This document shows, one piece after another, positions 18,084 through 62,483 of a DNA stretch of 64,000 nt. The position numbers were made by a program, and so were the translations under genes. Location: positions 2,790,001 to 2,854,000 of the forward strand of contig CP048715.1 of NCBI GenBank assembly GCA_022641835.1, read 5' to 3'. Position 1 is the stretch's first letter; every line of letters starts with the position of its first letter. This DNA comes from Petasospora fabianii (Eukaryota; Ascomycota; Saccharomycetes; Phaffomycetales; Wickerhamomycetaceae). Under the pieces are notes generated by a model. It did no database searches and was not told where the DNA came from. It saw only the letters and a list, made by a program, of their open reading frames with translations.

Positions 18084-18947
18084 TGAGCAATTTGTAATAT
18101 TGGCCATTGCTTCCAATAATGATTTAATGAAATTTATTCGAACAGTTTCATGTAGTTTCCAGTACATCTCACCATAAGCGCATTACCTTATAGTCGAAAA
18201 GATCATCTCTAAGAGGGGCCCCTTCAGATACCTTTTCTCCCTCACAGCTATATCCATATCGCTACCTCGCTCCTTGAGTGATTTAATGACGACGTAATCC
18301 TGAAATTGATTCCTTTTGCCATAGGCTGGTACAATTCCACAAGTTGAATACACTAAATGTTGGGGAACTGCTTTGAACTAATCATTACTGGCTCTCCTGA
18401 GCTTTTATGTAGAGAAAAGCACTGTTGCTTCCTGTAGGGCCCAATGTCAAGCGATTTTGCTTTCTAGGGATACCAAAGCCGTACTTTTGGGTCTGGGGAT
18501 GCAGAAGACGGGTCTGCCAGGTTTTACAATGAGGACTGTTAAGTTCGTGGTCTTGAACCCAGTGAGTGTCGCTCTATCAGGCAGCTTTACATCTCTCCTC
18601 AGAGAGAAGATAGCCAGTCTGTTGTCGTCTGGGCGGCTGTGCCTTCGTTGCAATTACACTATCTATATATACTAAGCACTGATACCCGGCAGCTATGAAT
18701 AAGCCTTTAACCAGCAGAAACAGTGTCGTGAGGAGTGCAAACGTCATAGTAATCTCAAGGCGGCTGTATGTTAACGATGGAGGGGGCATCACTTACGTAA
18801 GCGTATGCGCACGGCTTACATGAACGCTTACTCAGCCATTCTCGAAATTTTTTCCCTGGATTTGTCGTGGACTATAGTACTTGCAAGGTCTTCTTAATGC
18901 TGAACTACCCCATCTCCCAGATCTGTTCCCCATAATCACCATCCACC
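18084..18947. other. DIB1-SSZ1 gap with hairpin-rich segment
   Basis: This 864-bp gap is long for the window. It holds the DIB1 3' end and the SSZ1 promoter. I see no conserved protein. From about 18460 to 18640 several short inverted repeats follow each other: CCAAAG with CTTTTGG, GCAGA with TCTGC, and TCTCTC with GAGAGA inside CTATC with GATAG. Such a row of stems could be a small noncoding RNA gene, for example of the H/ACA class; an ACA triplet lies near 18656. No family-specific box confirms this. AGGGGCCCCT at 18213-18222 is a perfect palindrome. Confidence 0.3.
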
Positions 18948-20570
18948 ATGGCTTACATCGGTATTTCCTTCGGTAACACCACATCCTCTATTGCCGCTCC
19001 ATCTAAGGACGGCTCCATCGAGGTTATCGCTAACCCAGATGGTGAGCGTGCCATCCCATCTGCCCTCGCCTACATTGGCGACGACGAGTACCACGGTGGT
19101 CAGGCTCTTGCCCACCTCATCAGAAACCCACAGAACACCATTGTCAACTTCAGAGACTTTTTGGGTCAGACCTACGAGAACGTCGACGCCACTTTGACCG
19201 AGCGTTCTGCCAAGGCTAAGGACATCAACGGTGCCGTTGGTTTCGAGGTCGCTGTATCTGATGAAAAGACCTTGTCTTACACCGCCAAGCAGGTCACCGT
19301 CAGACACTTGGAGCAGTTGAAGGCTGCCGCTAAGGACTATCTCGGTAAGGAGATCGAAGGCTCCGTCATCGCTGTCCCAACCAACTTCACCGACAAGCAG
19401 AAGGAGGAGCTTCTCTCCGCCGCCAACGAGGCCGGCTTGAACGTGATGCAGTTGATCAACGAGCCATCCGCTGCCTTGCTTTCCCACGTTTCCCAAGACG
19501 ACAGACTCACTGAGGATAAGACTTACGTTGTTGCTGACTTTGGTGGTGTCAGATCCGATGCTGCCGTCATCTCTGTCCGTGGTGGTATCCTCACAATCTT
19601 GGCCACTGCCCACGACTACGAGCTCGGTGGTGATCAGTTGGACGCTGCCCTTTCTGAGTTCCTTGCTAAGGAGTTTGAGAAGAAGTACAAAGCTGACCCA
19701 AGAAAGACTGCCCGTTCTCTTGCCAAACTCAAAGACGCTTCCATCCTCGCCAGAAAGACATTGTCTAACGTCTCTTCTGCCACCATCTCTATTGAGTCTC
19801 TTGCCGATGGTATTGACTTCCACACCACTATCAACAGACTTCGTTTCGAGTTGACCGCTAGAAATGTTCTTTCTCAGATGACTGGCTTTGTTGAAGATGT
19901 CGTCAAGAAGGCCAACTTGGACGTTCTTGACATCGACGAGGTTGTCCTTGTTGGTGGTGTCTCCAACACACCAAAGCTCGCTTCTAACGTCGGTCTCTTG
20001 TTCCCAGAGTCCACAACCATCATTGCTCCATCCACTTCCACTAAGGCCTCTTTCCCAGAGGAGTGGGTTGCCCGTGGTGCCTCTATTCAGGCCTCTTTGC
20101 TTGAGAACTTTGATGCCGAGGATATCAAAGAATCTCAGTCCCCAGTTGTCGTCAACACACAACATTTGGTCAACGCTATCGGTCTTGTCGGTGCCAACAA
20201 CGAGTTCATTTCCGTCTTGAAGGCTGAGACTACGTACCCAATCAGACGTACTTTGTCTTTGGACTGCCCAAAGGGTGACGTTCTCCTCACTGTCGTTGAG
20301 GGTCAGGCTACCATCAAGGAGACCACACTCGAACCACCAGCTAGAGATGAGGATGATGAGGATGACGATGACTACTCTGATGAGGAGCCAGAGGTTGTCA
20401 AGGAGAAGGTCTTTGTTCCAGGTACCAAGCTTGCTGAGATTGCTGTTAGAGATGTCACTACTGACAAGCTCGAGGTTATCTTCAACATCACAAAGGATGG
20501 TGTTCTCTCTGTCTCTGCCAGAGAACCAAGACAGGGCTCTGTCGCATTCAAGGGTGAGATTACTTTCTAA
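18948..20570 (+). CDS. SSZ1: ribosome-associated Hsp70 Ssz1
   Basis: Ssz1 is an unusual Hsp70 that pairs with the J-protein Zuo1 in the ribosome-associated complex and stimulates Ssb on nascent chains. The 540 residues begin MAYIGISFGNTTSSIA. They include NPDGERAIPSALAYIGDDEYHGGQ, INEPSAALL, the phosphate-loop region VVADFGGVRSDAAVI, and VLVGGVSNTPKL. The family's shortened substrate-binding domain follows an acidic stretch, DEDDEDDDDYSDEEPEVV, near 465-482, which yeast Ssz1 also has. S. cerevisiae Ssz1 is 538 residues. Codons are strongly biased toward GGT, GCC, AAG and GAG, as expected of an abundant protein. It converges on TRM9 with 78 bp between stops. Confidence 0.97.
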   Translation: MAYIGISFGNTTSSIAAPSKDGSIEVIANPDGERAIPSALAYIGDDEYHGGQALAHLIRNPQNTIVNFRDFLGQTYENVDATLTERSAKAKDINGAVGFEVAVSDEKTLSYTAKQVTVRHLEQLKAAAKDYLGKEIEGSVIAVPTNFTDKQKEELLSAANEAGLNVMQLINEPSAALLSHVSQDDRLTEDKTYVVADFGGVRSDAAVISVRGGILTILATAHDYELGGDQLDAALSEFLAKEFEKKYKADPRKTARSLAKLKDASILARKTLSNVSSATISIESLADGIDFHTTINRLRFELTARNVLSQMTGFVEDVVKKANLDVLDIDEVVLVGGVSNTPKLASNVGLLFPESTTIIAPSTSTKASFPEEWVARGASIQASLLENFDAEDIKESQSPVVVNTQHLVNAIGLVGANNEFISVLKAETTYPIRRTLSLDCPKGDVLLTVVEGQATIKETTLEPPARDEDDEDDDDYSDEEPEVVKEKVFVPGTKLAEIAVRDVTTDKLEVIFNITKDGVLSVSAREPRQGSVAFKGEITF

Positions 20571-40122: not shown

Positions 40123-42135
40123 TCACCAGACATCCTCCTGGTACTTGTTCAAAGTTCTGAAGTTTTTCAAGATCTCGTGTGCCTTCTCCTCAGGGAAGTT
40201 CTTGCTCTCGGCGAGGATCTTACAAAGAGTGTCGTTGACATCTCTGGCCATCTTAGCAGCATCACCACAGACGTAGATGAAGGCACCAGCATCAATCAAC
40301 TTCATGATCTCATCCTTGCGCTCGTACAACTTGTGCTGAACATAAACCTTCTCCTTACCCTCTCTAGAGAAGGCATTGACCATCTCGAAAGATTCACCAA
40401 GGGCCTTAGCGTACTGTGGCCACTCCTCCTTGTACAAGAAGTCCTCCTGGGAGTTTCTGCAACCGAAGAACAAAATCATCTTACCGAACTCCTTACCCTG
40501 CTGAGCCTGAGCAACACGGTCACGGATGAAACCTCTGAATGGAGCAACACCAGTACCTGGACCGATCATGATAACTGGAGCAGAAGCGTTCGTTGGGAGT
40601 CTGAAAGTGGACTTACGAACGTGAACTGGGAGCTTGAATGGGGCGAATGAGCCTCTTGGTCCCTTGAGGTCGTATGTCTGGAATGGGGTAGCAGATTCCT
40701 TATTCTGCTCGAGCTCAATGTTACGGATCAAGTTGGTGGCTACACCGGTGATGGTTCTGTCCTCAAACTTCTCAGCCTCGACGACGGCGGTAATGTGAAT
40801 GGTAGTCTTTTCAGACAAGTTGGAGGAGGAAATAGAGTAATAACGTGGCTGCAAGTGAGGAATAGATTCAATCAAGAACTCCAGAGAGAGAGTAGTCCAG
40901 CGAGCACCGCCAGAGAGAAGCTCGAGAACATCAGCAAGGTCGTACTTCTTAGCGTGGATCTCCTCAGCGAAGACGTTCTTGGACTTAGAGAGTCTGTCAC
41001 ACTCCTCCTTGGCATTCGCATTCGGAGCAAACTGCTTCAAGTTGGCAAGTGTCTGTCTGGAGACTGGACCGGAGATCTCCTTGTAGTTTCTGAAGATGGC
41101 CTCAATTGTACATGGAGTTGGGAACGGAATGCTGACGGTGGAATCCAATGGCTTCAAGTCAATGACGTGATCCTTGTCTTCCCACAAATTAGTGATCTTC
41201 AAGAACTTCTCAAGCTTCTCATTGGAGTTAGATGGCCAGACAGCCAAGTGGTCACCAGTGCTGTAACGAAGATCGGTATTTGAGAGGTCGAACTCAGCAT
41301 GAATGCAAGACCTTCCTTTAGAATTGAAGAGCTCCTTAGAAGAAGAAATTGGGGCCAGGTATGGGTGGGCATGGTCGAAGGGACCCTTGGAGAGGTCTGT
41401 GGATGTGAGATAGGACTTATCGGGCTCACCAAGGTAAACCTTGTCCTCATCGAACTCACCTGGGTCCAACTTGGTGAGCTTGAGGGATGGCTCAAATGCA
41501 GCATCGGACTCCTCGAGGTTAAGAGTGTCCTTCAAGAGGTCGAGTGTATTTTCCTTCCAAGCCAAGTAATCTTCATCCAAAGTTCCAGCACCGTCATCAC
41601 CCTTGCCGAACTCACCAAGAATAGTGGCACCGGCATTGTTAAGGGAGTTATAAGCCTTCTGAGCTGCACCGTTGAAGAACTCGTAAGTGGAGTTACCCAA
41701 GCCGAACAAGGTGTACTTGAGGTTACCAAGGTCACCTTCGGACAATGTAGAGACGTGCTCCTCGAAGGGAACAGACTGGTCTGGGAAATCACCCTCACCG
41801 TAGGTAGCGATGAAGAAGGAGACGATGCAGTCGAGGTCGTTCAAAGTTTCAAAGTCGTAGTCAGCGAGGTCGGCAACCATAACATTGAGTTTGAACTTGG
41901 CCTTGAGCTCCTTGGCATACTTGTGAGCATAGTCCTCAGCAGTACCTGTCTGGGAACCGTAAAAGATAAGGTACTGCTTCTTGTTCTCTCTAACAACCTC
42001 AGCGATGTCACGAGAGTCAGAGACAACGCGAGTCCCATCGTCGGCAACGGCCCAAAGAACTCCCTTGGAGAAGTAAGCGAGCAGAGCGACAGCAAGAGCC
42101 ACAAGCACGGAGTAGTCGAGGGTATCGAGAGCCAT
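40123..42135 (-). CDS. NCP1: NADPH-cytochrome P450 reductase
   Basis: This ER enzyme passes electrons from NADPH through FAD and FMN to cytochromes P450 (Erg11 in sterol synthesis) and to squalene epoxidase. The 670 residues start MALDTLDYS, with a membrane anchor at about 8-24. The flavodoxin domain carries YGSQTGTAED at 59-68 (FMN phosphate loop). The FAD domain has PRYYSISSS near 433-441, and the NADPH domain has GPGTGVAPFRGF and FFGCR. The protein ends in EDVW, with the aromatic residue that stacks on FAD. S. cerevisiae Ncp1 is 691. The frame is open 92 codons upstream, but the family start and the membrane anchor fix the ATG at 42135. Confidence 0.96.
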   Translation of the reverse strand: MALDTLDYSVLVALAVALLAYFSKGVLWAVADDGTRVVSDSRDIAEVVRENKKQYLIFYGSQTGTAEDYAHKYAKELKAKFKLNVMVADLADYDFETLNDLDCIVSFFIATYGEGDFPDQSVPFEEHVSTLSEGDLGNLKYTLFGLGNSTYEFFNGAAQKAYNSLNNAGATILGEFGKGDDGAGTLDEDYLAWKENTLDLLKDTLNLEESDAAFEPSLKLTKLDPGEFDEDKVYLGEPDKSYLTSTDLSKGPFDHAHPYLAPISSSKELFNSKGRSCIHAEFDLSNTDLRYSTGDHLAVWPSNSNEKLEKFLKITNLWEDKDHVIDLKPLDSTVSIPFPTPCTIEAIFRNYKEISGPVSRQTLANLKQFAPNANAKEECDRLSKSKNVFAEEIHAKKYDLADVLELLSGGARWTTLSLEFLIESIPHLQPRYYSISSSNLSEKTTIHITAVVEAEKFEDRTITGVATNLIRNIELEQNKESATPFQTYDLKGPRGSFAPFKLPVHVRKSTFRLPTNASAPVIMIGPGTGVAPFRGFIRDRVAQAQQGKEFGKMILFFGCRNSQEDFLYKEEWPQYAKALGESFEMVNAFSREGKEKVYVQHKLYERKDEIMKLIDAGAFIYVCGDAAKMARDVNDTLCKILAESKNFPEEKAHEILKNFRTLNKYQEDVW

Positions 42136-42772
42136 TGAAGAGTGTGTTCTGGGGGTCTCACCGTGCAATGTGCTGGATATGGTGAGAGAAGTGAAGAGAA
42201 AAGGAGGAAAGATCAAGCCTAATCCCGTCGTGCGCGCAGAGTGGAAAGACTTTTTGGCGAAAAAACGGGTGATATATTCCTCATTAGGAGAAATTTTGCG
42301 CCGGAGTATCGCGAGAAGCGCCAAAAGGAACGCGTTCGTTTCGCCAATTAGCGTTTTGGCGATAACGCGTCGTTTAAAAGTTGGGTGTAAACGGCGCCAG
42401 GCTCTCAGCAATCGTTGCGATTGTGAGGATAATTAAGTACCACATAGTGGCTCTTGGACCTACTGCATCTTTATCGAGCTTCAGACATCACATGAACAGG
42501 TGAAAATTCCGAGCTCATGGAGACCGTTTAATGATTCCTAAACGTTAAACGAGGACTTGTGGCATGTTTGGTGTTCGGGTGTTGGTTTTATATTGTCCGA
42601 CCGGATCGCGGCATTGCCCGAGCAGAAATGGCAGACTATGGATCTATTGACACGGGAGGCTGTGACAGCAATTGCCTCCGGCTGGGCCACAGCACTGTAT
42701 GTATAACAGTTGAACTATGCCGCTCAATTGAAGTGACCATTGCCACGTTAATCATCGCTAACGAACCCAAAA
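42136..42772. promoter_or_regulatory. divergent promoter, NCP1 / INM1
   Basis: This 637-bp gap separates two divergent starts. The 180 bp nearest NCP1 plus the next 60 bp are rich in CpG motifs, listed as a separate cluster. I saw no sterol-response element of the TCGTATA type that would be expected for NCP1. The INM1-proximal half has no element I recognise. Confidence 0.5.
42252..42370. promoter_or_regulatory. cluster of TTGGCG motifs and two MCB boxes
   Basis: Within 119 bp there are four TTGGCG motifs. TTTTGGCGA lies at 42252-42260 (+), TTTTGGCGC at 42326-42318 (-, an exact E2F-type consensus), TTGGCGAA at 42347-42340 (-) and TTTTGGCGA at 42354-42362 (+). Two perfect ACGCGT boxes at 42330-42335 and 42365-42370 interleave with them. 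Such density suggests G1/S-type control of NCP1, INM1 or both. Confidence 0.55.
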
Positions 42773-57038: not shown

Positions 57039-57869
57039 ATGACTTCGGAGCCTTCCAAGCTTCTGACACTTTCAAACCCCGATGACTGGATCTTCTTTGC
57101 CAAGGGAAACGCCAATCTGGTGTACAAATACATAGGCATCAACACTCCACATCTCATCAAGAATCGGACACTTCTTCGTCTACGACAAAAAGGTCAGGAG
57201 TATGATACAAAGATAGTGTACGAATTCACTGAGAAAGTACGAAAGGACTTCCCTGAACTGATAACATTAACGCTTGCTCGAGTTACATTTCAGATTGAAG
57301 GCGGTCTCAATGATGGATTTGGTCTTCTGATGGAGAATATTATTCCAGATTCAGCACAGATCAAGCACAAGACGGCATACTACACGATTTATACGTATGA
57401 TCATGGATTAGTTGTTGAGATTAAGCCCAAATGGCTAACGAAGACGCGCTATGGATGTCGCAATTGTGCACATCATCGATACAAGCATGGAGATAATGCA
57501 GACTGGTGTGTACTTCGTTTACTTGTTGATGGTGATACAATTGAAAGCACACTTCGGAATATGCATCTCCCTCCAAAAGCATGTGGGCCCCTAACAAGGT
57601 ATATGGAATCAGACGGCTCAGTGCTAAAGAAGATACAAAGGAGACAGAGACCGCTGGACGAGTTGGAGACTCTGAAGGAGGCACAAGTTAACGATGAGCT
57701 CTGCTACCAGATGTCCTTAAGAGATACGACAGTATTTTTCAATCTCAAAATTGAAGTTCAAGAGTGGAAGTATTCGGACGTTGTGATGACGGATTTTGAT
57801 CCAAAGTCATCGAAGAAATGGAGGCATTGGGTCTCTACAGAACGTAAACTTATCCAAGACTTTTATTGA
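57039..57869 (+). CDS. IPK1: inositol-pentakisphosphate 2-kinase Ipk1
   Basis: Ipk1 phosphorylates IP5 to phytate (IP6), which supports mRNA export with Gle1 at the nuclear pore. The 276 residues, against 281 in S. cerevisiae, include WIFFAKGNANLVYKYIG at the start (nucleotide loop) and the signature EIKPKW at 127-132. A cysteine/histidine cluster begins CRNCAHHRYKH at 140-150 and fits the family's zinc site. VFFNLKIEVQ and MTDFDPKSSKKWRHW near the end carry the metal-binding Asp. The ATG at 57039 is the first ATG. Its stop codon lies only 6 bp from that of convergent HTD2, so the two transcripts must overlap at their 3' ends. Confidence 0.94.
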   Translation: MTSEPSKLLTLSNPDDWIFFAKGNANLVYKYIGINTPHLIKNRTLLRLRQKGQEYDTKIVYEFTEKVRKDFPELITLTLARVTFQIEGGLNDGFGLLMENIIPDSAQIKHKTAYYTIYTYDHGLVVEIKPKWLTKTRYGCRNCAHHRYKHGDNADWCVLRLLVDGDTIESTLRNMHLPPKACGPLTRYMESDGSVLKKIQRRQRPLDELETLKEAQVNDELCYQMSLRDTTVFFNLKIEVQEWKYSDVVMTDFDPKSSKKWRHWVSTERKLIQDFY

Positions 57870-57875
57870 TCATCT

Positions 57876-58673
57876 TTACTCTGCATCCAAGGTTGCTTCC
57901 ACAAGCAGCTGGCCATCCGTCTTTTGAATCCAAGCATCGAATACACTGTCTTCGTTCTCTCGCAGACACAACTTTATCTCGTCACCGGCAAAAATGGGGG
58001 CAATATTCTTATATGTGAACTCTTTAATCTTCAAATCATCATACAACGTATTCACCCACTCAAGCAAAAGCGTAACACTCAATGGGCCTTGCAACAGTAC
58101 ATTAGGATACCCTTCACTTTCAGCATACACTTTGTCATAGTGGATTTTGTGAGAATTGAACGTCAAGGCTGAGTATCTGAATAGCATCAGCTCGGTTGGT
58201 TTCATGATGTGGGAGAACGATGGCTTTTTCTCCACAAACACCGGCTCTGGTGGAGTATAGTACGTATTTGTGTATATAAGAGTTCTCTTCTCTTCAATGG
58301 CAACATCCTCACCCGAGATAATCTCACGATTAATTGTCACGTAGTGCTTGTCTCGAAGCTTGCGGAATGCATCAATTGATTCCACGCAAATCGACTTTCG
58401 GTCGAAGGGCACTGAGTGATGGAACTTCATCGAACCTCCAATCCACATGCGTCTCTTGAAAGAGGTATCATCAGGCTGTTGATGTGCGTCATATCCGTCC
58501 TTTGAAAGTGCGTCTTCCTCAGACTTGGGGTTGAAGTAAATCAGGTGGTAGCCCGGTGGGATATGTGACGTGAGTGGCCGTTGCACGTTGAAGTACGAGT
58601 ACAGCGTGGCCTTAAGACATTGAGAGTGAGTCCGGGAGAGACAATCTGAGAGGATCCAGGTCCTTGAAAGCAT
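57876..58673 (-). CDS. HTD2: mitochondrial 3-hydroxyacyl-thioester dehydratase Htd2
   Basis: Htd2 performs the dehydration step of mitochondrial type II fatty acid synthesis, which supplies octanoate for lipoic acid. The ATG at 58673 gives 265 residues opening MLSRTWILSDCLSRTHSQ, aligned with yeast Htd2 (MKSKTWIFRDVLSSHRT) and suitable as a targeting sequence. Conserved parts include MWIGGSMKFH, ESIDAFRKLRDKHYVTI, FRYSALTFNSHKIHYDK (hot-dog-fold catalytic region with a histidine) and LLQGPLSVTLLLEWV. S. cerevisiae Htd2 is 280. The frame is open upstream to 58910 and has another ATG at 58842, but that extension is composed of low-complexity Arg/Glu/Thr from a CT repeat. An exact GCGATGAG (PAC) lies at 58775-58782. 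Confidence 0.88.
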   Translation of the reverse strand: MLSRTWILSDCLSRTHSQCLKATLYSYFNVQRPLTSHIPPGYHLIYFNPKSEEDALSKDGYDAHQQPDDTSFKRRMWIGGSMKFHHSVPFDRKSICVESIDAFRKLRDKHYVTINREIISGEDVAIEEKRTLIYTNTYYTPPEPVFVEKKPSFSHIMKPTELMLFRYSALTFNSHKIHYDKVYAESEGYPNVLLQGPLSVTLLLEWVNTLYDDLKIKEFTYKNIAPIFAGDEIKLCLRENEDSVFDAWIQKTDGQLLVEATLDAE

Positions 58674-58792
58674 TGGAGAGCGATTGAAGATATAGTATGA
58701 CGCTAAATAACGGTTCGATTTAAGCGTTGATATATTTGTCCTCCTTGGTACTTTTGCGCGGGGAAGATAATGTCGCGATGAGTCGGTTCCCG

Positions 58793-58822
58793 TCTCTCTC
58801 TCCGTATCTCTCTCTATCTCTC
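58793..58822. repeat. CT-rich microsatellite upstream of HTD2
   Basis: Interrupted CT dinucleotide repeat (TCTCTCTCTCCGTATCTCTC type) in the gap between the permease stop and the HTD2 start; on the HTD2 strand it is GA-rich and could lie in its leader. Confidence 0.75.
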
Positions 58823-58918
58823 CGGCAGTAGTATTTGTATTCATGAGTCTAGAATTGAGTATAATTTCAAAAGCTTCAATTGATAAAATGCATACAGAAA
58901 AAAAATACAAAATATAAG

Positions 58919-61900
58919 CTATGCCTTCTCGGTCAAATTTTCGGCCTCAACGGTCTGGTCAACAAGGTTCTTGATCTCGCTCTCATCCATCTTCTTCAAC
59001 ATCTCTTCAGTGTTGAAGATCTGCACCTGAGTAGTCTTGAACTTTCTAGCCCTGACATTGTTACTGAAGAGCATGTCCAGCTCAGCGAAAGTTCTTCCCT
59101 TGGTCTCAGGGAACTCAAACCAAGTATAGATCAGCGACACGAAGCAGAAACCAGCCCAGAAGAGACCAGTCTTAGCTTTCCAGTTCCACTCTGTTGGATT
59201 AAGCATATATGGGGTGATGATGGACACTGGGATACCAGCCAAATTGTACATGTTTCTAGCGATACCCACAGTCTTAGCTCTCATAGTAGCAGATGGGATC
59301 TCAGCAACGGCACAGTAGGTGATAGGACCAATACTAGCGTCATAGACAAATGTGAACACCAAGAGAAGAGAACCAATGGCCCATGATGCACCCTGCGAGT
59401 CGGCAAAGCCCAAGCCACCAACACACACAAGCACAACGAAGTTGATACAAAGACCACCAAAGAAGATATCAAAACGGCCGAGTTTCTGGGAAAGAACCCA
59501 AGAGAGGATAGTTCCGATGAGACCAAGTGCATACTGAATAATAGAGAAAGTGAAAGACATACCCTTATCAAGACCAGCTTGGGTATAGAAGTATGTGGAG
59601 TAACCCATCAAGGCGGAACCGGTGATATTCTGGATAACCCAAATGAGTGAAGCGACTCTGGTTCTTCTGAAGTTTTTCTTAGTGAAGCAGTCCAAGTATG
59701 ACACATTAGAAACTTTCTGGTCCTCTTCTTTTAAAGTCAATTGAATCTTGTTCAACATGGCATCGGCAAGGATATCAACATCTGGAATATCAGAGTTTGG
59801 AGTGAGAAGTCTTCTAATACTGCGACGAGCTTCCTTGGCTTTATTCTTCTTGACAAGCCACCATGGAGACTCTGGGGCAAGGTAGATACCAATAATGATA
59901 GGAATTGGCCAGATCCACTGCAAAGCCCAAGGGATTCTGTATGCCCATATTGTTGTCATATTGAGTGTACCTCTCAAGACACAAGCAGCAATTAACTGAC
60001 CAATGACCCAACAAGCATTGACATAAGTAGTCAAGTAGACTCTCAAGACAACAGGGCAAACCTCAGAGGCATAAGACACGGTCAAAGTCTGGAAGGCACC
60101 CCAGACGCAACCACAGAAGAGTTCACCAACGAGCAACATCTCAAGATTAACACTGAAGAAGACGATGAAGACGAACACAATAGTAAGAGCCATTGCAACG
60201 ATCAAAGTACGTCTGTAACCCCACTTCTCACCAGCGATACCAGCAGCGTAAAGACCAAAGATACCACCAACGTGGGAGGACATAGAGAGACTAAGTTGCC
60301 ATTTTGCTGGAATCTGCCACTGATCGATGTCTGGATAGTATTCACCGTAGTTTTTCTGGAAAACGTCCTGGTTGTACAAAGAAGCCAAAAGGGATGTATC
60401 GAAACCCTCCATGATCAAAGCAGTAGAGAGGACGACGGACCAAAATGCAGCCTTTGGGAAAGTTTTAAGACCTTGTTTCAAAGGCATTATTTTCTCCTTT
60501 TGATCGTTATCCTGAGCATTCGAAGACATCTCAATGAATTTGGCAACGTAATCATTGAGAGCATCGTCAGCGATGTTGATCTCAGATCTAGCGATACCCA
60601 CAGTCTTAGCTCTCATAGTAGCAGATGGGATCTCAGCAACGGCACAGTAGGTGATAGGACCAATACTAGCGTCATAGACAAATGTGAACACCAAGAGAAG
60701 AGAACCAATGGCCCATGATGCACCCTGCGAGTCGGCAAAGCCCAAGCCACCAACACACACAAGCACAACGAAGTTGATACAAAGACCACCAAAGAAGATA
60801 TCAAAACGGCCGAGTTTCTGGGAAAGAACCCAAGAGAGGATAGTTCCGATGAGACCAAGTGCATACTGAATAATAGAGAAAGTGAAAGACATACCCTTAT
60901 CAAGACCAGCTTGGGTATAGAAGTATGTGGAGTAACCCATCAAGGCGGAACCGGTGATATTCTGGATAACCCAAATGAGTGAAGCGACTCTGGTTCTTCT
61001 GAAGTTTTTCTTAGTGAAGCAGTCCAAGTATGACACATTAGAAACTTTCTGGTCCTCTTCTTTTAAAGTCAATTGAATCTTGTTCAACATGGCATCGGCA
61101 AGGATATCAACATCTGGAATATCAGAGTTTGGAGTGAGAAGTCTTCTAATACTGCGACGAGCTTCCTTGGCTTTATTCTTCTTGACAAGCCACCATGGAG
61201 ACTCTGGGGCAAGGTAGATACCAATAATGATAGGAATTGGCCAGATCCACTGCAAAGCCCAAGGGATTCTGTATGCCCATATTGTTGTCATATTGAGTGT
61301 ACCTCTCAAGACACAAGCAGCAATTAACTGACCAATGACCCAACAAGCATTGACATAAGTAGTCAAGTAGACTCTCAAGACAACAGGGCAAACCTCAGAG
61401 GCATAAGACACGGTCAAAGTCTGGAAGGCACCCCAGACGCAACCACAGAAGAGTTCACCAACGAGCAACATCTCAAGATTAACACTGAAGAAGACGATGA
61501 AGACGAACACAATAGTAAGAGCCATTGCAACGATCAAAGTACGTCTGTAACCCCACTTCTCACCAGCGATACCAGCAGCGTAAAGACCAAAGATACCACC
61601 AACGTGGGAGGACATAGAGAGACTAAGTTGCCATTTTGCTGGAATCTGCCACTGATCGATGTCTGGATAGTATTCACCGTAGTTTTTCTGGAAAACGTCC
61701 TGGTTGTACAAAGAAGCCAAAAGGGATGTATCGAAACCCTCCATGATCAAAGCAGTAGAGAGGACGACGGACCAAAATGCAGCCTTTGGGAAAGTTTTAA
61801 GACCTTGTTTCAAAGGCATTATTTTCTCCTTTTGATCGTTATCCTGAGCATTCGAAGACATCTCAATGAATTTGGCAACGTAATCATTGAGAGCATCGTC

Positions 61901-62002
61901 AGCGATGTTGATCTCAGATCCTGAAGACGTGAGCTTAGTGGTTATGTCCTTTGCATGTTGGACTTCGTTCGGTTTAGTGATGTCTTCGACAAACTCGGGC
62001 AT
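58919..62002 (-). CDS. alpha-glucoside (maltose-type) MFS permease with internal in-frame duplication
   Basis: Sugar:proton symporter of the MAL31/AGT1 family in the plasma membrane. Signatures include MEGFDTSLLASLY, ALQWIWPIPIIIGIYLAPESPWWLVKK, GSALMGYSTYFYTQAGL, AEIPSATMRAKTVGIAR, ITPYMLNPTEWNWKAKTGL and PETKGRTFAELD. A normal member is about 580-615 residues; this frame encodes 1027. Residues 29-472 are repeated exactly as 473-916 (444 residues, 1332 bp). Removing one copy leaves 583, the family size. The first copy has membrane segments 1-10 and joins at the cytoplasmic 10-11 loop to the N-terminal tail of a complete second copy. Whether the 22-segment product exists is unknown; a misassembly is the main alternative. 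Substrate (maltose, trehalose or other) cannot be read from sequence. Confidence 0.9.
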   Translation of the reverse strand: MPEFVEDITKPNEVQHAKDITTKLTSSGSEINIADDALNDYVAKFIEMSSNAQDNDQKEKIMPLKQGLKTFPKAAFWSVVLSTALIMEGFDTSLLASLYNQDVFQKNYGEYYPDIDQWQIPAKWQLSLSMSSHVGGIFGLYAAGIAGEKWGYRRTLIVAMALTIVFVFIVFFSVNLEMLLVGELFCGCVWGAFQTLTVSYASEVCPVVLRVYLTTYVNACWVIGQLIAACVLRGTLNMTTIWAYRIPWALQWIWPIPIIIGIYLAPESPWWLVKKNKAKEARRSIRRLLTPNSDIPDVDILADAMLNKIQLTLKEEDQKVSNVSYLDCFTKKNFRRTRVASLIWVIQNITGSALMGYSTYFYTQAGLDKGMSFTFSIIQYALGLIGTILSWVLSQKLGRFDIFFGGLCINFVVLVCVGGLGFADSQGASWAIGSLLLVFTFVYDASIGPITYCAVAEIPSATMRAKTVGIARSEINIADDALNDYVAKFIEMSSNAQDNDQKEKIMPLKQGLKTFPKAAFWSVVLSTALIMEGFDTSLLASLYNQDVFQKNYGEYYPDIDQWQIPAKWQLSLSMSSHVGGIFGLYAAGIAGEKWGYRRTLIVAMALTIVFVFIVFFSVNLEMLLVGELFCGCVWGAFQTLTVSYASEVCPVVLRVYLTTYVNACWVIGQLIAACVLRGTLNMTTIWAYRIPWALQWIWPIPIIIGIYLAPESPWWLVKKNKAKEARRSIRRLLTPNSDIPDVDILADAMLNKIQLTLKEEDQKVSNVSYLDCFTKKNFRRTRVASLIWVIQNITGSALMGYSTYFYTQAGLDKGMSFTFSIIQYALGLIGTILSWVLSQKLGRFDIFFGGLCINFVVLVCVGGLGFADSQGASWAIGSLLLVFTFVYDASIGPITYCAVAEIPSATMRAKTVGIARNMYNLAGIPVSIITPYMLNPTEWNWKAKTGLFWAGFCFVSLIYTWFEFPETKGRTFAELDMLFSNNVRARKFKTTQVQIFNTEEMLKKMDESEIKNLVDQTVEAENLTEKA
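59255..60588 (-). repeat. permease duplication, copy A (downstream half)
   Basis: One of two directly repeated 1332-bp units. The homology ends at 59254/60586, where the bases differ, and shares the two bases TC at 60587-60588 with copy B. I compared the text and found no difference between the copies. Confidence 0.93.
60587..61920 (-). repeat. permease duplication, copy B (upstream half)
   Basis: The second unit, offset by exactly 1332 bp from copy A, so the frame is kept (444 codons). It ends at 61920; the next base differs from 60589. Confidence 0.93.
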
Positions 62003-62085: not shown

Positions 62086-62443
62086 TTAAGACGCAAGGAG
62101 GTGGGGTGTGGGGTCCATGGAATCCGAATGTGGGTGGCTTGCCTTGGCCTCGGTATTGCAGTTGGCTGCGTCCCCATGGTATGCCGCAATAATTTGAAGA
62201 TGGGTGATGCAGTGTGGAGAAAAAGAGAGGTGCATAATCCAAATCGCATCATACACTTGCTGGTTTTTGTAACGAGCTCTGTTGGGTATTTTTTAATGTT
62301 TGTGCCTCAAGCAGAAACGGAGAAATTGGAGTCATTAGATGCTCCGAGCATCGCCAAGGCACTATGAAGGTAAACCGCGTGGATCAAACGATCGAGTCAA
62401 ACACACTCAAAGAGAGAAGGGGGAATATCTGTATCATCTGTTG

Positions 62444-62483
62444 ATACTTTGATACTTTGATACTTTGATACTTTGATACTATA
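62444..62483. repeat. GATACTTT 8-bp tandem repeat
   Basis: Four exact GATACTTT units and a fifth changed one (GATACTAT), about 440-480 bp upstream of the permease start. Confidence 0.9.

What the first reader, a model, noticed from the sequence alone, without database searches (positions are those of the whole stretch)
58919..62002. A maltose-type permease gene with an exact, in-frame tandem duplication of 444 codons
Seen: 59255-60588 and 60587-61920 are direct repeats offset by 1332 bp (3 x 444) with no difference that I could find, and the reading frame runs through both. Known: MAL/AGT1 permeases have 12 membrane segments and about 580-615 residues. Inference: the locus encodes a 1027-residue, 22-segment protein (segments 1-10, then a full 1-12). 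The fusion point joins a cytoplasmic loop to a cytoplasmic tail, so both units could insert with normal topology. Two fused symporter units could act as a dimer, be inactive, or reflect a selected dosage event at a sugar-uptake locus. Identity of the copies means the event is very recent, or that the assembly is wrong.
Basis: partly seen in the sequence, partly recalled or inferred. Interest (0 to 1): 0.82.

Follow-up and report, generated by a model that had tools for sequence, protein, structure and literature searches.

The report
Self-duplicated sugar permease gene in yeast
In this genome assembly of a yeast very close to Cyberlindnera fabianii, most of one ordinary maltose-type sugar-uptake gene is repeated head to tail in frame, giving a double-length protein; it is either a very young mutation or an assembly mistake, and one PCR or a few long reads would tell which.

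Summary
The host is very close to Cyberlindnera fabianii. The same gene in a database C. fabianii sequence (P0001) is a normal 583-residue permease, differing only at S127G. None of the 120 listed of 1126 hits is double-length; none of 16 short hits spans the junction. Best reading: one recent intragenic tandem duplication, private to this strain or assembly. Whether it exists in cells is undecided (about 0.6 real, 0.38 artefact); no reads were available. Unit 1 is a 10-helix fragment lacking 19 of 114 family-invariant residues; only unit 2 is a complete permease. Promoter and 3' end are single, so this is not a dosage event. Two working symporters in one chain is unlikely. Low to moderate interest.

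The parts
58919..62002 (-). Tandem-fused maltose-type (alpha-glucoside) permease ORF, 1027 aa
   Evidence: Pfam Sugar_tr 528 bits over 2 stretches; NCBIfam sugar porter TIGR00879 over 2 stretches
60587..61920 (-). Repeat copy that is 5' in the gene (codons 29-472 and two bases of 28): part of the N-tail, helices 1-10 and the first nine residues of helix 11
59255..60588 (-). Repeat copy that is 3' in the gene (codons 473-916 and two bases of 472), followed by the unique 3' end that completes a 12-helix unit
60587..60588 (.). Duplication junction, 2-bp shared sequence TC
58919..59254 (-). Unduplicated 3' end: rest of helix 11, helix 12, C-tail (codons 917-1027) and stop
   Evidence: 19 of 114 invariant columns of alignment A1 lie here
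61921..62002 (-). Unduplicated 5' end of the ORF, codons 1-27 and the first base of 28; sequence upstream of the start is not duplicated

Best explanation
An ordinary 583-residue MAL/AGT1-type alpha-glucoside permease gene of Cyberlindnera fabianii (or a near-identical yeast) has, in this strain, undergone one recent tandem duplication of 1332 bp inside its coding sequence, joined at a 2-bp microhomology (end joining or template switching), which happened to be in frame. Transcribed from the single original promoter, it would give a 1027-residue chain: a 10-helix truncated unit, then a complete 12-helix permease. Most likely any transport is done by the second unit, with the first as a passenger that lowers folding or surface delivery. 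The 1334-bp direct repeat should be unstable, collapsing back to the normal gene by homologous recombination. Shown: the sequence, frame, repeat limits, a single-unit orthologue, the place of the breakpoint in a model. Inferred: that the duplication exists in cells, its mechanism, its expression, its effect and its instability.
For: Exact repeat and open frame. Single-unit 583-aa orthologue in a C. fabianii database sequence, identical to residues 1-472 at 471 of 472 places and to residues 473-1027 at 554 of 555, the one difference (S127G) being the same in both copies. All 120 listed of 1126 relatives are 568-646 aa. In the own genome 24 places match at E<=0.001 (27 candidates scored); apart from this gene's two pieces the best is a single-unit 582-aa paralogue, 73% identical in DNA and 74% in protein, in a MAL-type cluster, and the rest are at 27% or less. 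No N, and no other long exact repeat, at or near the breakpoints; that assemblers seldom break in such sequence is my judgement. In the model unit 2 has a continuous helix 11 (908-934) and the junction region 456-478 has pLDDT below 50. Intragenic microhomology-mediated tandem duplications are described in fission yeast ssp1 (review PMC13207564, passages seen).
Against: No reads, depth or second assembly of this strain could be consulted, so the duplication may not exist in cells. The 2-bp microhomology and the open frame would each occur by chance (about 16%, and 1 in 3). Zero differences between the copies is equally what an assembly error predicts. No other source searched shows the junction.
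Confidence: 0.57

Rival explanations
1. Assembly artefact: the chromosome has one normal 583-codon gene and the second 1332 bp was added by a chimeric long read, an unmerged contig overlap or a gap-closing step.
For: The copies are identical over 1334 bp. No other source searched holds the junction: the 120 listed of 1126 protein hits are single-unit, none of 16 short hits covers more than 60% of the junction query, 0 exact matches in viral contigs (an off-target collection that may leave out the window's own records). Orthologue P0001 is single-unit.
Against: No N, low-complexity stretch or long repeat at the breakpoints that would explain an assembly break there; the nearest paralogue is only 73% identical in DNA. 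A plain contig overlap would keep the frame one time in three. P0001 differs by one residue, so it is another strain or allele and does not test this strain.
Confidence: 0.38
2. A fused two-unit permease in which the truncated first unit contributes function, for example by pairing its N-half with the second unit, altering substrate range or coupling.
For: The frame is open and, the copies being identical, both units carry the E-x-x-D motif and the invariant Arg (R472 and R916). A natural, functional MFS-MFS fusion, NarK1-NarK2, exists in Paracoccus (PMC5217062, abstract and linker section seen).
Against: Unit 1 lacks most of helix 11, helix 12 and 19 of 114 invariant columns. NarK joins two units through a linker between helices 12 and 13; here the join is inside helix 11. 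No sequence divergence shows selection for a new role.
Confidence: 0.04
3. Remnant of two complete tandem permease genes fused by deletion of the sequence between them.
For: It would give the same junction, and a second MAL-type permease gene lies about 203 kb away on the same contig.
Against: It needs two events and two identical full genes; the only close paralogue found is 73% identical in DNA.
Confidence: 0.01

Closest known systems
Yeast MAL/AGT1-type alpha-glucoside:H+ symporters (sugar porter family of the MFS); direct orthologue P0001 of C. fabianii
   Same: 471 of 472 residues (1-472) and 554 of 555 (473-1027) identical to P0001; same start and C-tail; Sugar_tr and TIGR00879 matches
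   Different: One 583-residue unit there; here codons 29-472 are repeated
Microhomology-mediated intragenic tandem duplications (fission yeast ssp1)
   Same: Head-to-tail duplication inside a coding sequence with short shared bases at the join (review PMC13207564, passages)
   Different: Here only 2 bp are shared and the frame stays open; mechanism and instability not tested
NarK1-NarK2 fused nitrate/nitrite transporter of Paracoccus
   Same: Two MFS units in one chain
   Different: [quoted passage not shown] here an incomplete and a complete copy of one unit
Chimeric SeMALT413 maltotriose transporter of S. eubayanus
   Same: Recombination inside maltose permease genes (PMC6448828, abstract)
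   Different: That is a mosaic of at least three paralogues; this is a repeat of one gene

Membership tests
MAL/AGT1-type alpha-glucoside permease | Sugar porter (MFS) domain | tested here: met
   PF00083 528.2 bits, two stretches; TIGR00879 662.1 bits, cut-off 237.8
MAL/AGT1-type alpha-glucoside permease | Closest relatives named as maltose/alpha-glucoside permeases | tested here: met
   P0001 'Alpha-glucosides permease MPH3', P0002 'General alpha-glucoside permease', P0008 'Maltose permease'; names as the sources wrote them, not tested functions
MAL/AGT1-type alpha-glucoside permease | Single 12-helix unit of about 570-650 residues | tested here: not met
   1027 residues: an incomplete unit plus a complete one; unit 2 on its own meets it
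MAL/AGT1-type alpha-glucoside permease | Residues Glu-120, Asp-123, Glu-167 and Arg-504 of Mal11 (PMC5662749, passages) | tested here: inconclusive
   By spacing, E532, D535 and R916 match and are invariant in 28 of 28 other rows; the Glu-167 position is G here and in P0001, E in 21 of 28. Mal11 itself was not aligned.
MAL/AGT1-type alpha-glucoside permease | Proton-coupled maltose uptake | not testable with these tools
   needs an uptake assay
Microhomology-mediated tandem duplication | Short shared sequence at the join | tested here: inconclusive
   2 bp; chance of 2 or more is 0.16
Microhomology-mediated tandem duplication | Reverts or is mixed in the population | not testable with these tools
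   needs reads or PCR
Functional fused MFS pair (NarK type) | Two complete 12-helix units | tested here: not met
   unit 1 stops nine residues into helix 11

The most novel reading that the evidence does not exclude
A natural, real and expressed 22-helix permease allele, in which the truncated copy modulates the attached complete one (trafficking, coupling or substrate range) and which switches back to the normal gene by recombination, so that a sugar-uptake locus flickers between two protein forms.
Probability: 0.05. Interest if true: 0.55.

Novelty: new variant of a known kind. Interest (0 to 1): 0.24.

Why it matters
If real, it is a clean natural snapshot of an intragenic tandem duplication caught before any divergence, in a kind of gene that is selected on in fermenting yeasts, and a ready test of whether an incomplete MFS unit in front of a complete one is tolerated. 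If an artefact, it is a warning about this assembly at a sugar-uptake locus and about double-length permeases in annotation.

Tried and rejected
Dosage amplification: rejected, since promoter, start, last 111 codons and stop are single. Loop-to-tail fusion: rejected on the model, with the caveat that the Mal11 paper's own model places the equivalent arginine in helix 10. Fusion of two diverged paralogues: rejected, copies are identical and the paralogue is 73% identical in DNA. General repeat-rich region: rejected for the stretches read; only this repeat reaches 40 bp.

Searches that led nowhere: junction-spanning short proteins, junction DNA in viral contigs, papers with 'in-frame tandem duplication' + transporter + yeast (0 papers), 24-transmembrane MFS fusions (0 papers), tandem duplication + in-frame + intragenic + yeast + microhomology (2 papers, listing only), false-duplication papers (listing only). 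These searches cover open-licence PubMed Central papers only, so they do not show that nothing like this is in print.

The strain was not identified. The genome has 16 contigs and 12,335,623 bases, unlike strain 65 (25 sequences, 12,188,250 bases; main text, part 1 of 2), YJS4271 (419 scaffolds; whole text) and TBRC 4498 (77 contigs; passages). JOY008 is called the complete reference genome (passages), but I saw no contig count for it there or in PMC11311480 (passages).

A hydropathy scan at one threshold gave 21 peaks, 10 in unit 1 and 11 in unit 2, some overlapping; too crude to count helices.

Full report
What was checked. The repeat is exactly as described: 59255-60588 equals 60587-61920 at all 1334 positions, offset 1332 bp, and the minus-strand ORF 58919-62002 runs through both for 1027 codons (spacing also). 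At the join the two parental ends share TC. In protein terms residues 29-472 recur as 473-916. No other exact direct repeat of 40 bp or more was found in the window, in the 10 kb to its left and 16 kb to its right that were read, or in the 10-kb paralogue locus (words occurring 20 times or more were left out).

Whose gene it is. The best relative of the protein, P0001, is a 583-aa protein named from Cyberlindnera fabianii. Compared piece by piece without joining, residues 1-472 of the window protein match P0001 at 471 of 472 places and residues 473-1027 at 554 of 555; the one difference, S127G, is the same in both copies. The paralogue differs from its C. fabianii counterpart P0002 at 5 of 582 residues. 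The window is thus from C. fabianii or a near-identical yeast, and P0001 is from another strain or allele. Serine at this place is common in the family (S 12, G 9, A 7 of 28 rows), so the shared serine does not date the duplication. One of P0001's names, CYFA0S03e04082g1_1, bears the prefix that I recall for strain YJS4271, a short-read assembly that could in principle have collapsed an exact repeat; the strain behind its other name is cut off in the listing.

How unusual it is. Of 7993 scored candidates, 1126 matched at E<=0.001; the best 120, all that are listed, are 568-646 aa long. A duplicated relative should have scored about twice as high (inference), so one within the permitted length range (about 565-1797 aa) is unlikely to have been missed. 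Shorter fragments were tested with a 191-aa junction query: 16 hits among 92 candidates, none covering more than 60% of it. In the own genome 24 places matched (27 candidates scored); besides this gene's two pieces, the nearest is a single-unit 582-aa permease, 73% identical in DNA and 74% in protein, about 203 kb away on the same contig, and the rest are at 27% identity or less. That paralogue sits in a MAL-type cluster with an alpha-amylase-family enzyme (alpha-glucosidase by likeness) and a Zn-cluster protein. The duplicated gene has a glycosyltransferase-20 gene (trehalose-phosphate synthase-like) next to it and another alpha-amylase-family gene about 7 kb upstream, C1:2859023-2860711. MAL clusters in C. 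fabianii are in print (PMC6070925, passages and section 3.2 seen).

Anatomy of the product. AlphaFold on 29 sequences gave mean pLDDT 75.5 and pTM 0.54, so the placing of the two units relative to each other is not to be trusted. In alignment A1 the 28 relatives cover the first ten residues and then unit 2, leaving unit 1 almost without aligned relatives; the model of unit 1, and the disorder at the junction, are therefore weak evidence. Helix 11 of unit 2 is residues 908-934. The breakpoint follows R916, nine residues into that helix. In unit 1 the same residues (464-472) fall in a stretch without helix (457-479), and the chain then enters the hydrophilic N-tail (from S473) and helix 1 of unit 2. 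The alignment with human GLUT3 puts R916 three places before the N-W pair of GLUT3, which I recall as part of its helix 11. If the stub does not span the membrane, the chain stays on the cytoplasmic side and unit 2 could insert normally; that is inference. Unit 1 lacks most of helix 11, helix 12 and 19 of 114 invariant columns. By residue spacing, R472/R916 correspond to Arg-504 of S. cerevisiae Mal11, described as the only transmembrane basic residue, and placed in helix 10 of that paper's model (PMC5662749, passages), a label that differs from mine. The spacing agrees within one residue with that in relatives P0119 and P0120, but Mal11 was not aligned. So the duplication boundary falls directly after a likely coupling residue.

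How it most likely works. One promoter, one start, one stop: the event gives one longer protein, not more gene copies. The complete unit 2 is the plausible transporter; unit 1 is a passenger that may cause retention or degradation. A 1334-bp direct repeat should recombine back to the normal gene, so a culture may hold both forms (inference); a review describes reversible intragenic duplications in fission yeast (PMC13207564, passages; the primary paper was not held).

Real or artefact. Nothing available decides it. For real: N-free breakpoints without other long repeats, no near-identical paralogue found, open frame, small microhomology. For artefact: zero differences and no second source. The lack of differences bounds the age only loosely: with recalled yeast mutation rates of 1.7e-10 to 3.3e-10 per base per generation, three expected differences would take some 3-7 million generations, and gene conversion could hide more.

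Verdict. Sound observation, ordinary gene, young or spurious duplication. The tandem permease is worth one PCR, not more, until shown to exist.

Noticed in passing
window 62441-62480: Five exact head-to-tail copies of an 8-base unit (TTGATACT) about 440 bp upstream of the permease start, between it and the glycosyltransferase-20 (trehalose-phosphate synthase-like) gene.
   Followed up: partly
window 61595-61597 and 60263-60265 (residues 136 and 580 of the 58919-62002 protein): The position that by spacing matches Mal11 Glu-167, a proton-coupling residue, is glycine in both units and in P0001; E in 21 of 28 relatives, otherwise Q (4), S (1), C (1). This permease may be less tightly coupled, with or without the duplication.
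   Followed up: partly
L030 5418-7166: The single-unit MAL permease paralogue differs from the database C. fabianii sequence P0002 at 5 of 582 residues, including R for L at 384, which by alignment falls in a stretch modelled as a membrane helix in the window permease.
   Followed up: no
window 18936-20165 (-) and 18948-20570 (+); 40123-42135 (-) and 41299-42138 (+): Long open frames on opposite strands overlap almost completely; probably one real gene each.
   Followed up: no
window 57876-58844 (-), 57039-57869 (+): Neighbours: a MaoC-like dehydratase match below its curated cut-off, and an inositol-pentakisphosphate 2-kinase match whose best stretch covers only residues 92-150.
   Followed up: no
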